From assembly GCF_014652235.1 (NCBI RefSeq), contig NZ_BMYK01000001.1, positions 392,982 to 456,981 of the forward strand: a DNA stretch of 64,000 nt, in the 5' to 3' direction. The notes beneath the pieces are model-generated. The model was not told the origin of the DNA, did not search any database, and saw only the letters and a list, made by a program, of their open reading frames with translations. The stretch is from Pseudorhodoferax aquiterrae. GTDB taxonomy: Bacteria > Pseudomonadota > Gammaproteobacteria > Burkholderiales > Burkholderiaceae_C. The first letter of the stretch is position 1, and every line of letters starts with the position of its first letter. Positions 5,656 to 11,820 of the stretch are shown in pieces. A program made the position numbers and the translations under genes.

Positions 5656-6669
5656 TCAGCCCGGTGCGGACGATCCGCGCACCACCAGCTGTCCCTCCAG
5701 CAACACCCGCCGTGCCGGGCCGGTGTGGCCCTGCAGCCGCTCGATCAGGCAGCGCGCCGCGCCTTCGCCGATGGCGTCGGTGGGTTGGGCGATGCAGGTC
5801 AGCCCCGGGCCGATCAGCGGGGCCCAGTCCGGATCGTCGAAGCCGGCGAAACCCAGGTCGCTGCCGAACTGCCAGCCGAGCTCGCGCACCGCGCGGGCCA
5901 CGCGCAGCGTGACCACCGCGTTGCCGGCCACCACGGCGGGGCGGCGCTTCCTGCCGGCGCGCCGGCGCAGCGCGGCCAGGGCCGCCAGGAGCGCGGCGTC
6001 GTCGCCCTCGGCGCTTTCGAACACGCTGCCGGCCATGGGGGCCTGCAGGCAGGTGCCGAAGGCCGCCGTGCGCTCGCGCCGCGTGCTGACGCCGGCCACG
6101 GGTTCCGTCACGTACAGCAATTCCTGCCAGCCGCCGGCCTGCAGGTGGCTGCACAGCTGGGCCATGGCGCCGGCGTTGTCCAGCGCCACGAAGTCGGTCT
6201 GCATGCCGGTGTGGCGCCGGTCGATCAGCACCACGGGCTTGCCCTGGGCCGCCACGGCGTCGGGCACGCTGTGGCCGCGGCCCAGCGTGTTGAGGATGAA
6301 GCCGTCGACCTGGTAGCCGGCCAGGGCCTCGATGGCCTCGCGCTCGCGGCCCGGCTCGTTGCCCAGGTTGAACAGCATGACCAGGTAGCCGGCTTCGCGG
6401 CAGGCGCGTTCGGCCCCGCGCAGCACGGCCACGGAATAGGGGTTGGCGATGTCGGCCACGACCAGGCCGATCAGGCGCGAACGGCCGCGGCTCAGCGCCT
6501 GGGCCATGGGGCTGGGCGCGTAGCCGAGCTGGTCGATCGCGGCCTGCACGCGCGCGGCGATGTCCGGGCTCAGCAGGCGCTCGCGGTGGTTGAAGAAGCG
6601 CGAGACCGTGGCCTTGGAGACGCCCGCGGCCGCGGCGACGTCGGAGATCGTCGGGCGGCCTGCGCTCAC
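5656..6669 (-). CDS. ptxS: LacI-family repressor, PtxS-like
   Basis: A 337-residue regulator. The N-terminal LacI helix-turn-helix (TISDVAAAAGVSKATVSRFF) and hinge (YAPSPMAQALSRGRSRLIGL) precede a periplasmic-binding-protein-like sensor domain. It starts with GTG at 6669, overlapping the upstream dehydrogenase stop (GTGA). It is the last gene of a seven-gene operon whose leader carries TGAAACCGGTTTCA at 11807-11820, the sequence I recall as the operator of Pseudomonas PtxS, which is released by 2-ketogluconate. Both its place in an operon with KguK- and KguD-like enzymes and that operator support the name. Autoregulation is inferred. Confidence 0.8.
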   Translation of the reverse strand: MSAGRPTISDVAAAAGVSKATVSRFFNHRERLLSPDIAARVQAAIDQLGYAPSPMAQALSRGRSRLIGLVVADIANPYSVAVLRGAERACREAGYLVMLFNLGNEPGREREAIEALAGYQVDGFILNTLGRGHSVPDAVAAQGKPVVLIDRRHTGMQTDFVALDNAGAMAQLCSHLQAGGWQELLYVTEPVAGVSTRRERTAAFGTCLQAPMAGSVFESAEGDDAALLAALAALRRRAGRKRRPAVVAGNAVVTLRVARAVRELGWQFGSDLGFAGFDDPDWAPLIGPGLTCIAQPTDAIGEGAARCLIERLQGHTGPARRVLLEGQLVVRGSSAPG

Positions 6670-7637
6670 ACCTGGCGCGTGTCGTAGACGGCGCTGGGCC
6701 GCTCGCCGGCCAGCACCTGCAGCAGGTTGGTCACGGCCAGCGCGGCCATGGCATGGCGGGTCTCGGCCGTGGCCGAGCCGATGTGCGGCAGCGGCGTCAC
6801 GCGCGGGTGCGTGCGCAGCGGCGAGTCGGCCGGCAGCGGCTCCTTGGCGAACACATCCAGGCCGGCCGCGCGCAGCGGGCCGTGGTCCAGCGCGTGCAGC
6901 AGCGCGGCCTCGTCCACGGTGGCGCCACGGCCGCCGTTGACGAAGATGCTGCCGGTCTTCATCTGCGCGAACAGGTCTGCGTTGAGCATGCCGCGCGTGG
7001 TGTCCGACAGCGGCAGCATGGCGACCACGAAGTCGGCGCGCGGCAGCAGTTCGGCCAGCGGCGTGTGCCGCGCCTTGCCCACGAGTTCGGGCGCCTGCGC
7101 AGCCAGGTCGACCGGGCGGCGCGCGTGGTAGAGCACCTCCATGCCGAAGCCCAGCGCGGCACGCCGCGCGATCGCCTGGCCGATGCGGCCGAAGCCCAGC
7201 AGGCCCAGGGTCTTGTGGTGCACGTCCCAGCCGTACAGGTCTTCGCCCACGCTCTTGGTCCAGCGGCCTTCACGCACGAGGTTGGCCAGCTCGACCATGC
7301 GCCGGCTGGTGGCCATGAGCAGGCCGAACACGGTGTCGGCCACGGTCTCGTCGAGCACGCCGGGCGTGTGGCACAGCACGATGCCGCGCTGTTGGAGGGC
7401 GGCCAGCGGGTAGTTGTCCACCCCGACCGAGACGCTGGACACCACGCGCAGGCGCGGCGCCTGGTCCAGCAGCGCGGGCGTGATGGGGTAGCTCGCGCCG
7501 ATCAGGCCCTCGGCCTGCGGCAATGCGGCTTCGAAGGCTGCGGGGTCGGTCTTGGGGTGGGTGACGGTGACCTGGTGCCGGGCCTGCAGGCGCGCGAGCT
7601 GGTCGGGCGGCAGGGTGCCGAAGACGACGACGTTCAT
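6666..7637 (-). CDS. kguD: 2-hydroxyacid dehydrogenase, probable 2-keto-6-phosphogluconate reductase
   Basis: A 323-residue D-2-hydroxyacid dehydrogenase. The Rossmann motif LGLLGFGRIGQAIARR is followed after beta-2 by YHARRP; basic residues in place of the NAD-type acidic residue suggest NADP(H). The catalytic triad is visible as Arg in NGGRGATVDE, Glu in FAKEPLP and His in LPHIGSAT. Context between a PfkB kinase and a PtxS-like repressor makes it the likely KguD, reducing 2-keto-6-phosphogluconate to 6-phosphogluconate for the Entner-Doudoroff pathway. The alternative is a GhrB-type ketogluconate/glyoxylate reductase acting on the unphosphorylated acid. It overlaps both neighbours by 4 bp. 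Confidence 0.8.
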   Translation of the reverse strand: MNVVVFGTLPPDQLARLQARHQVTVTHPKTDPAAFEAALPQAEGLIGASYPITPALLDQAPRLRVVSSVSVGVDNYPLAALQQRGIVLCHTPGVLDETVADTVFGLLMATSRRMVELANLVREGRWTKSVGEDLYGWDVHHKTLGLLGFGRIGQAIARRAALGFGMEVLYHARRPVDLAAQAPELVGKARHTPLAELLPRADFVVAMLPLSDTTRGMLNADLFAQMKTGSIFVNGGRGATVDEAALLHALDHGPLRAAGLDVFAKEPLPADSPLRTHPRVTPLPHIGSATAETRHAMAALAVTNLLQVLAGERPSAVYDTRQV

Positions 7638-8587
7638 GGGGCGGCTTCCTCCAGTTGTGCGCGCGTGGGCAGGCCCTCGGTGTCGCCGATCACCTGCACG
7701 CAGCGTGCACCGATCCACGCGCCGCGGCGCACGGCCTCGGGCACGCTCAGGCCTTCGAGCAAGGCACTGACCACCCCGGCCGCGAAGCCGTCGCCGGCGC
7801 CCACGGTGTCCACGACCTTCTCGACAGGACAGCCCGGCACGCGGCCGGTGCCGGCCACGTCGCTGTCGTAGTAGGCACCGTCGGCGCCGAGCTTGACGAC
7901 CACGAGCCTGGCGCCCTGGGCACGGTAGAAGGCGGCCACGCGTTCGGGCGCGGTCTCGCCGGTCAGGATCTCGCCTTCCTCGATGCCGGGCAGCACCCAG
8001 TCGGCGCGCGCGGCCAGGCCGTTGATGGCCTCGACCATGGCGGCGCGGCTGGGCCACAGCGTGGGCCGCAGGTTGGTGTCGAACGAAACCGTGCGGCCGG
8101 CTTCGCGCGCGATCTCCATGCTGCGGATGGCCGTGGGCAGCGTGGTGGCCGAGATGGCCGGGAACACGCCCGTGGCATGCAGGTGGCGCGCGCTGCGCAG
8201 CCAGGCCTCGTCGATGTCGGCGGGCGTCATCTGGCTCGCGGCCGAGCCCTTGCGGTGGTATTCGACGGGCGGGTCGCTGCCATCCGTCACGCGGCCCTTG
8301 AATTGAAAGCCCGTCTTCTGGCTCGCGTCGCAAACGACGTGGCCGCAGTCGATGCCCTCGGCCTGCATGCTGCGCAGCAGGTAGCGGCCCATGCTGTCCG
8401 TGCCCAGGCGGCTGGCCCAGCCGACCTTGAAGCCCAGGCGCGCCAGACCGATCGCAAAATTGGTTTCGGCACCGGCCGTGCGTTTGAGGAAGCCCGTGCA
8501 ATCCTCCAGCGGGCCGGGCTGGTCGGCGACCAGCAGCATCATGGCTTCGCCGAACACGGCGACGTCGAAAGCGGTGGGAGTGCTCAT
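7634..8587 (-). CDS. kguK: PfkB-family sugar-acid kinase, probable 2-ketogluconokinase
   Basis: A 317-residue ribokinase-family enzyme. The N-terminal substrate region [14 protein letters not shown] and the C-terminal PfkB signature [13 protein letters not shown] (catalytic Asp in GAGD) are intact, and the length fits KdgK/KguK kinases. PfkB sequence alone cannot separate 2-keto-3-deoxygluconate from 2-ketogluconate as substrate. The PtxS-type operator and the KguD-like neighbour favour 2-ketogluconate, giving 2-keto-6-phosphogluconate. ATGA overlaps with the ATPase upstream (8584-8587) and the reductase downstream (7634-7637) show tight translational coupling of transport, phosphorylation and reduction. 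Confidence 0.78.
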
Positions 8588-11123: not shown

Positions 11124-11795
11124 TTACCTCTTGTCCGGATAGTGGAGGAACTGGCGGTGCACGAGCTTGAACAGCGCCGAAAACGCGAGGGCCAGGCCCA
11201 GGTAGATGGCCGTCACCACGATGTAGATCTCGAAGCTGCGGAAGGTCTGCGACTGCAGCGTGGCGGCCACCGAGGTCAGGTCGTCGGCGGAGATCACCGA
11301 GACCACGGCCGAGGTCAGCATCAGCAAGATGAACTGGCTGGTCAGCGCCGGGTAGATGGCCTTGAGCGCGGGCTTCAAGATCACGAAGCGGAAGATCTCC
11401 CAGCCCTTGAGGTTCAGCGCGCGGCCGGCCTCGATCTGCCCCTTAGGAATGGACTCGATGCCGGCGCGGATGATCTCGGTGGCGTAGGCGCCCAGGTTCA
11501 CGACCATGGCCGTCAGCGCGGCCTGGTAGGGCGACCAGCGCAGGCCGAACACCGGCAGCGCGAAAAAGAAGAAGAACAGCTGGACCAGGAAGGGCGTGTT
11601 GCGGATCAGCTCGATGTAGGCCTGGATCACGAAGCGCAGCCAGGCCGGCCCGCTGGTCTTGCCCCAGGCGCCCAGCACGGCGACGACGAGGCCCAGCACC
11701 GTGGCCGTGAGCGAGAGCTGCACGGTGATCCAGGTGCCCTTGAGCATCAGCGGCCAGGCGGCCAAGACCGCGTCGAACTGGAATTGGTAGTTCAC
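11124..11795 (-). CDS. ABC importer permease, His/Glu/Gln/Arg/opine type
   Basis: A 223-residue membrane subunit with the EAA loop IEAGRALNLKGWEIFRFVIL and the N-terminal family segment AYIELIRNTPFLVQLFFFFF. It is the first gene of the operon and starts with GTG at 11795, only 12 bp from the PtxS-type palindrome (11807-11820). Repressor bound there would overlap the promoter or the ribosome-binding region and silence the whole operon. Only 43 bp separate it from the 3' end of the diguanylate cyclase gene, so the promoter must lie in this gap or in the end of that gene. Confidence 0.88.
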   Translation of the reverse strand: MNYQFQFDAVLAAWPLMLKGTWITVQLSLTATVLGLVVAVLGAWGKTSGPAWLRFVIQAYIELIRNTPFLVQLFFFFFALPVFGLRWSPYQAALTAMVVNLGAYATEIIRAGIESIPKGQIEAGRALNLKGWEIFRFVILKPALKAIYPALTSQFILLMLTSAVVSVISADDLTSVAATLQSQTFRSFEIYIVVTAIYLGLALAFSALFKLVHRQFLHYPDKR

Positions 11796-11806
11796 GCGCC
11801 GGATTG

Positions 11807-11820
11807 TGAAACCGGTTTCA
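11807..11820. promoter_or_regulatory. PtxS-type operator, TGAAACCGGTTTCA
   Basis: A perfect 14-bp palindrome directly upstream of the importer operon. It equals, as I recall it, the published operator of Pseudomonas putida PtxS, the 2-ketogluconate-responsive LacI-family repressor. The operon it heads ends with a LacI-family gene and includes KguK- and KguD-like enzymes, which makes the match unlikely to be chance. I saw no second full copy in the window. Confidence 0.82.

What the first reader, a model, noticed from the sequence alone, without database searches (positions are those of the whole stretch)
5656..11820. Probable 2-ketogluconate operon using a polar-amino-acid-type ABC importer, marked by a PtxS operator
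The operon permease-permease-binding protein-ATPase-PfkB kinase-2-ketoacid reductase-LacI regulator is headed by TGAAACCGGTTTCA, the operator I recall for Pseudomonas PtxS. In Pseudomonas 2-ketogluconate enters through the MFS carrier KguT. Here KguT and the KguE gene are absent and a family 3 binding protein with a GlnQ-type ATPase takes their place. ABC importers of this type are expected to carry amino acids, so a sugar-acid specificity would be unusual.
Basis: partly seen in the sequence, partly recalled or inferred. Interest (0 to 1): 0.78.

Follow-up and report, generated by a model that had tools for sequence, protein, structure and literature searches.

The report
Sugar-acid operon with amino-acid-type importer
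A soil bacterium's probable genes for eating the sugar acid 2-ketogluconate include an ATP-driven uptake pump of a type normally labelled as an amino-acid importer, which suggests that such pumps may often be mislabelled.

Summary
In detail: seven co-directional genes behind an exact copy of the published PtxS operator. The reading is largely supported and reaches beyond this window. The LacI protein groups with PtxS (100/99); kinase and reductase are the genome's best matches to KguK and KguD; no KguT-like carrier (best 28% identity) and no KguE was found in the genome. Of 399 family genomes sampled, 45 encode KguE: beside it 39 have an amino-acid-type ABC importer, 2 are cut by contig ends, 4 (one genus) have a TRAP binding-protein gene, none has KguT. 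KguE was found in 0 of 6 genomes of the window's genus. The binding protein keeps the carboxylate Arg but has Ser where amino-acid binders have Asp, as do all 80 relatives fetched. In 5 of 6 alphaproteobacterial plasmid regions a related importer sits beside a 2-hydroxyacid dehydrogenase from another branch; a paralogue follows an L-arabinonate-dehydratase-type gene. The common factor is a (2-keto) sugar acid. 2-Ketogluconate as ligand and effector is inferred; there are no binding or growth data. Verdict: a new variant of a known operon, and the visible edge of a probable sugar-acid subclass of family 3 importers.

The parts
11807..11820 (.). PtxS-type operator TGAAACCGGTTTCA, 11 bases before the GTG start of the first permease
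   Evidence: sequence published for PtxS
11124..11795 (-). ABC permease 1 (HEQRo_perm_3TM domain, above its cut-off)
   Evidence: relatives
10464..11117 (-). ABC permease 2 (HEQRo_perm_3TM domain, above its cut-off)
9659..10435 (-). Family 3 solute-binding protein; Arg106 kept, Ser188 where amino-acid binders have Asp, Asn83-Arg84
   Evidence: model pLDDT 88.3, pTM 0.81
9343..9658 (.). Inverted-repeat element between binding-protein and ATPase genes (lies inside the operon; not taken as a working part)
8584..9342 (-). GlnQ-type ABC ATPase
7634..8581 (-). KguK orthologue: PfkB kinase; reaction inferred, 2-ketogluconate to 2-keto-6-phosphogluconate
   Evidence: (326 bits against 59 for the next in the genome), tree; PDB 4du5 is a close relative
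6666..7631 (-). KguD orthologue: D-2-hydroxyacid dehydrogenase; reaction inferred, 2-keto-6-phosphogluconate to 6-phosphogluconate
   Evidence: (292 against 270 bits), tree; best solved match 9m0t, 'Probable 2-ketogluconate reductase'
5656..6669 (-). PtxS orthologue: LacI repressor, GTG start overlapping the end of the reductase gene

Best explanation
A 2-ketogluconate (2KG) operon in which a polar-amino-acid-type ABC importer does the work of the MFS carrier KguT. Without 2KG, the PtxS orthologue sits on 11807-11820, just before the first permease gene, and holds the operon off. 2KG from outside, or made in the periplasm, is bound by the family 3 binding protein, its carboxylate on Arg106 and a hydroxyl or keto group near Ser188 instead of an amino group on Asp, and is pumped in at the cost of ATP. 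Inside, 2KG lifts PtxS; KguK phosphorylates it and KguD reduces the product to 6-phosphogluconate for the Entner-Doudoroff route. Shown here by sequence: gene set, orthology, operator, no close KguT and no KguE found in the genome, Ser188. Inferred: effector, ligand, contacts in the pocket, enzyme reactions, downstream route.
For: PtxS clade 100/99; operator exact and retained in relatives; kinase and reductase best matches and trees; importer beside kguE-kguK-kguD in 39 of 45 KguE-bearing family genomes, a TRAP binding-protein gene there in 4, KguT at 40% or more in 0; one KguT-like match at E 1e-60 or better in 399 family genomes, 34% identical; Ser188 in the window protein and all 80 fetched relatives and in 38 of 39 survey loci; related importer beside a 2-hydroxyacid dehydrogenase in 5 of 6 alphaproteobacterial regions; importer paralogue after an L-arabinonate-dehydratase-type gene; a Gluconate_2-dh3 family gene with GMC and cytochrome c genes in the same genome, a possible periplasmic source of 2KG.
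Against: No binding, growth or expression data. By sequence and fold the nearest solved proteins bind amino acids. The kinase alone is 54% identical to a kinase in an altronate-dehydratase operon and 52-55% to KguK. KguD's margin over a genome paralogue is small, and that paralogue falls in the same half of the tree. Lack of the Asp is not special to this protein: 6 of the 21 other family 3 genes of the genome lack it too. 8 of 39 survey loci have no TGAAAN4TTTCA within 400 bases before the first permease; 6 of these 8 have one elsewhere in the fetched region. Edd and Eda were not looked for.
Confidence: 0.75

Rival explanations
1. The importer brings in another (keto) sugar acid, such as 2-keto-L-gulonate, 2-ketogalactonate, a pentonate or a mixture of aldonates, and 2KG is a minor substrate or none.
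For: Close importer copies sit with an L-arabinonate-dehydratase-type gene (L013) and with a dihydroxy-acid dehydratase gene (L264); the 5 alphaproteobacterial regions with the reductase show no sugar kinase.
Against: Kinase and regulator group with KguK and PtxS, and kguE lies beside the importer in 39 of 45 KguE-bearing family genomes.
Confidence: 0.18
2. It is a true amino-acid importer, or one for an aminated sugar acid such as glucosaminate, that happens to share the operon.
For: Family labels and the top fold matches are amino-acid binders.
Against: Ser188 in place of Asp throughout the relatives; no ammonia-lyase, deaminase or transaminase among the seven genes; a TRAP binding-protein gene stands in its stead in one genus.
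Confidence: 0.04
3. The palindrome is a generic LacI-family site, and this regulator senses something other than 2KG.
For: LacI operators share a CG-centred form (recalled); 25 of 398 genomes of the phylum hold the 14-mer, and some copies stand near LacI genes that are only 30-33% identical (L110, L115, L116).
Against: Single exact copy in the genome; recognition helix SKATVSR against SKASVSR in PtxS; clade support; where lacI is the first gene in relatives, a site with one central change often precedes it too, as the exact site does before ptxS in L111-L114.
Confidence: 0.03

Closest known systems
ptxS-kguEKTD of Pseudomonas (PMC3402500, PMC11678583); annotated example Klebsiella aerogenes LR134124.1
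   Same: PtxS-type regulator, the same 14-base operator (Pseudomonas papers and L111-L114), KguK and KguD orthologues
   Different: ABC importer instead of the MFS carrier KguT; KguE missing here; lacI last in the operon instead of upstream
Polar amino acid ABC importers (GlnHPQ, HisJQMP, EhuABCD type)
   Same: Gene families, fold, carboxylate Arg
   Different: Ser188 in place of the Asp that (recalled) holds the alpha-amino group; gene context is sugar-acid breakdown
SocA, a family 3 binding protein (PDB 5l9o glucopine, 6hqh deoxyfructosylglutamine; titles)
   Same: Same fold; ligand has a sugar part
   Different: Those ligands keep an amino-acid part; the one proposed here has none
Plasmid operons L107 (Cupriavidus necator) and L109 (Diaphorobacter): amino-acid-type ABC importer with a KguK/KdgK-like sugar kinase; in L109 also altronate dehydratase and mannitol dehydrogenase genes
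   Same: Importer of the same type beside sugar-acid genes; same Ser and Asn-Arg residues at 40% identity
   Different: Other pathway genes, other gene order; GntR-type regulator in L109

Membership tests
kgu (2-ketogluconate utilisation) operon | PtxS-type LacI regulator | tested here: met
   Clade 100/99 with four PtxS proteins (L111-L114), nine LacI paralogues of the genome outside; best match in the genome, 252.6 against 167.8 bits
kgu (2-ketogluconate utilisation) operon | PtxS operator before the first gene | tested here: met
   Exact 14-mer at 11807-11820; at the first permease in 71 of 74 relatives
kgu (2-ketogluconate utilisation) operon | KguK kinase | tested here: met
   326 against 59 bits in the genome; split from the L107/L109 kinases 100/100
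kgu (2-ketogluconate utilisation) operon | KguD reductase | tested here: met
   Best match but by a small margin, 292 against 270 bits; groups with KguD of K. aerogenes 93/90
kgu (2-ketogluconate utilisation) operon | KguT (MFS carrier) | tested here: not met
   Best hit in the genome 28% identity, against 68-71% in L111-L114
kgu (2-ketogluconate utilisation) operon | KguE (TIM-barrel, epimerase-like) | tested here: not met
   Absent from operon and no match in the genome at E 1e-3, though present in 70 of 80 relatives
Polar-amino-acid-type ABC importer (sequence family) | SBP_bac_3 binding protein, HEQRo-type permeases, GlnQ-type ATPase | tested here: met
Amino-acid-binding family 3 protein | Asp for the alpha-amino group | tested here: not met
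   Ser188
PtxS | Released from DNA by 2-ketogluconate | not testable with these tools
   Published for Pseudomonas (PMC3402500, passages)

The most novel reading that the evidence does not exclude
Family 3 binding proteins with Ser (or another residue that is not Asp) at the amino site and an Arg at position 84 before the carboxylate Arg form an unrecognised class of 2-keto-aldonate and aldonate importers in alpha- and betaproteobacteria. They have been joined more than once with different reductases, kinases, LacI regulators and operators, and are annotated as amino-acid importers.
Probability: 0.55. Interest if true: 0.65.

Novelty: new variant of a known kind. Interest (0 to 1): 0.5.

Why it matters
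If true, one residue (Ser for Asp) plus gene context would let an annotator tell sugar-acid importers from amino-acid importers in one of the commonest ABC families. In the plasmid records seen here with annotation the parts are labelled amino-acid ABC transporter or left general. It would explain how Comamonadaceae take up 2-ketogluconate without KguT, give a case of one pathway served by three kinds of transporter (MFS, ABC, TRAP), and offer a natural KguE-free lineage for asking what KguE does; its function is unknown and its deletion only slows 2KG use in P. plecoglossicida (PMC11678583, section 3.2 read).

Tried and rejected
Relaxed operator search in the genome (two mismatches): 5 sites against 2 for the reversed control, so no further PtxS targets are claimed. 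The 14-mer in the phylum sample (25 of 398 genomes): L110 has it before another amino-acid-type importer with its own, different LacI; L115 and L116 stand by LacI genes only 30-31% identical; L117 showed no relative of the operon. The other loci of that search that were not kgu-like were not followed. Kinase sequence alone was rejected as proof of the substrate: it is nearly as close to a kinase in an altronate-dehydratase operon. Fold search was rejected as proof of ligand: top matches all bind amino acids or related compounds. A second upstream motif (GG-AAA-CCC-like) was found before only 19 of 73 sites and is not claimed. A leaderless start of the first permease was considered, since the GTG lies 11 bases from the operator; the spacing varies between relatives, so it is not claimed. 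The first count of the Asp position in the genome's family 3 proteins used wrong ORFs for L132 (its neighbour) and L141; it was redone, and only that count is used. No paper on this importer was found: listings and passages of PMC4052901 and PMC9007349; the library holds open-licence papers only, and no supplementary file was opened, so this is weak evidence of novelty.
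Full report
What is there. The window holds, on the minus strand, two permeases, a family 3 binding protein, a GlnQ-type ATPase, a PfkB kinase, a D-2-hydroxyacid dehydrogenase and a LacI regulator. TGAAACCGGTTTCA at 11807-11820 lies in the 43-base gap before the first permease and is the only exact copy in the genome. The same 14 bases are printed as the PtxS site in PMC3402500 (passages) and PMC11678583 (passages).

Is the operon kept in relatives? The binding protein was used to fetch 80 loci (the best 80 of 501 confirmed places). 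Of these, 58 have all eight genes of the set P1-P2-SBP-ATPase-KguE-kinase-reductase-LacI; the rest lack some, several because the contig ends. The exact palindrome is in 73 of 80 and at the first permease in 71 of 74. Around it, bases vary at most positions (those rows were chosen for the exact site, so the 14 bases themselves are invariant by selection). Most relatives have one more gene between ATPase and kinase, a KguE-like TIM barrel (70 of 80 at 58% identity or more). Four full operons lack it: L002, L003, L004 and L011, the window's nearest relatives.

Is it the kgu set? An annotated reference is K. aerogenes LR134124.1: ptxS (two CDS), kguE, kguK, an MFS gene, kguD. Asked with their or the Klebsiella proteins, the window's genome answers first with the window genes: PtxS 252.6 against 167.8 bits, KguK 326.5 against 58.9, KguD 292.4 against 269.6. 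The LacI tree puts window, 12 relatives and four PtxS together at 100/99, outside nine LacI paralogues of the genome. The kinase tree separates the KguK-plus-window rows from the two kinases of L107 and L109 at 100/100 (reference set small). In the reductase tree the window group is next to K. aerogenes KguD at 93/90, but a paralogue of the genome falls in the same half.

What replaced KguT? The best match to KguT in the genome is 28% identical, against 68-71% in L111-L114. KguE has no match. In 399 family genomes, 45 have KguE; all 45 regions were read. Thirty-nine have the amino-acid-type importer near kguE, one of them (L246) a divergent one at 45-50% identity with the binding protein first. 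Two regions are cut by contig ends with only the ATPase seen (L232, L242). Four, all of one genus (L235, L237, L248, L253), have no ABC genes but a TRAP DctP-type binding-protein gene within about 2 kb of kguD. KguT at 40% or more was near kguE in 0 of 45. A scan for KguT in 399 family genomes gave one match at E 1e-60 or better, 34% identical (four candidates scored per genome at most). All 6 genomes of the window's genus in the sample lack KguE.

What does the binding protein bind? The nearest solved sequences and folds are amino-acid binders (model pLDDT 88.3, pTM 0.81). In the alignment to AncQR, which is solved with arginine and glutamine, the window keeps the Arg (106) but has Ser188 where AncQR has Asp. 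That this Asp holds the alpha-amino group is recalled (D161 of LAO and HisJ); no call shows it. Ser188, Arg84 and Arg106 are present in the window and all 80 relatives, and Arg84 and Arg106 in all 39 survey importers, Ser188 in 38, Pro in L246. Control in the same genome: of 22 family 3 genes, 15 have Asp there, 3 Gly, 2 Ser (one is the window's), 1 Glu, 1 Val. So lack of Asp is a minority state, not unique.

Gene company elsewhere. The binding protein has 658 plasmid records with a match (60 listed, 9 of the listed or other hits read with neighbours counting L107 and L109). Of six alphaproteobacterial regions read, five (L259, L261, L262, L263, L265) have importer, 2-hydroxyacid dehydrogenase and a LacI gene (the L263 reductase is annotated dihydrofolate reductase but matches KguD at 35%). 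One (L260) has GMC oxidoreductase and short-chain reductase genes instead. These LacI proteins are only 26-32% identical to PtxS or the window protein, and other palindromes stand before the first permease (TTAGATCGATCTAA in three, TTGGATCGATCCAA in two). Their reductases form a branch apart from KguD at 100/100. Residue 188 is Ser in these five and Ala in L260. A Variovorax plasmid (L264) has a dihydroxy-acid dehydratase gene, importer and a reductase 72% identical to the window's. L013 has a binding-protein paralogue directly after a gene that scores 865.8 bits on the L-arabinonate dehydratase model (cut-off 882). In L109 a related importer shares an operon with altronate dehydratase, mannitol dehydrogenase and a sugar kinase. 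The shared factor is sugar-acid chemistry; amino-acid genes are not.

Mechanism. Repression by the PtxS orthologue at the operator, release by 2KG, ABC uptake, phosphorylation, reduction to 6-phosphogluconate. The last two steps follow the published Pseudomonas pathway (PMC11678583, section 3.2 read). A Gluconate_2-dh3 gene with GMC and cytochrome c genes could make 2KG in the periplasm; its substrate is untested.

Known or new. Each part is known; the combination was not found in print in the searches listed under Tried and rejected, which cover open-licence papers only. I rate it a new variant of a known kind, with the wider subclass as the bolder reading.

Noticed in passing
window 9343-9658: Inverted-repeat element between binding-protein and ATPase genes; 84.5% identical in L002, partly alike in L003, L004, L011 and, in pieces on both strands, in L059, L060, L066, L074, L225. 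Looks like a dispersed hairpin element.
   Followed up: partly
L235, L237, L248, L253: LacI-kguE-kguK-kguD without ABC or KguT genes, with a TRAP DctP-type gene nearby; all one genus.
   Followed up: partly
L246 4015-6226: Divergent amino-acid-type importer (45-50% identity, binding protein first, Pro at the Ser188 position) in the same place of a kgu-like operon.
   Followed up: partly
L259, L261, L262, L263, L265: Alphaproteobacterial importer plus 2-hydroxyacid dehydrogenase plus a different LacI, with other palindromes before the first permease.
   Followed up: partly
L109 261-7990 and L107: Amino-acid-type importer with sugar-acid genes (altronate dehydratase, mannitol dehydrogenase, sugar kinase in L109; kinase found by similarity in L107).
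   Followed up: partly
L013 8135-10801; L018 4061-6444: Lone copies of the binding-protein gene, after an L-arabinonate-dehydratase-type gene and after an RraA-like aldolase gene.
   Followed up: partly
L052 7910-8917: An IS30-like transposase ORF lies within the first permease gene of the operon.
   Followed up: no
window 11839-14922: A GGDEF gene and a dCache chemoreceptor gene stand upstream in the same direction; the GGDEF gene is kept in L002, L003 and L004.
   Followed up: no
L014, L228-L230, L239, L240 and others: Where lacI is the first gene, it is often preceded by a near-operator, TGAAACTGGTTTCA or TGAAACCAGTTTCA, and the first permease by the exact one.
   Followed up: partly
L171 9736-14664: Another family 3 binding protein of the genome with Gly in place of the Asp lies near a histidine-ammonia-lyase-type gene (aromatic amino acid lyase family); its ligand may also lack an amino group.
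   Followed up: no
L106 4865-5882: The K. aerogenes ptxS gene is annotated as two overlapping CDS, so it may be broken there.
   Followed up: no
L110 7180-12122: The exact 14-mer before an unrelated amino-acid-type importer operon with its own LacI gene.
   Followed up: no
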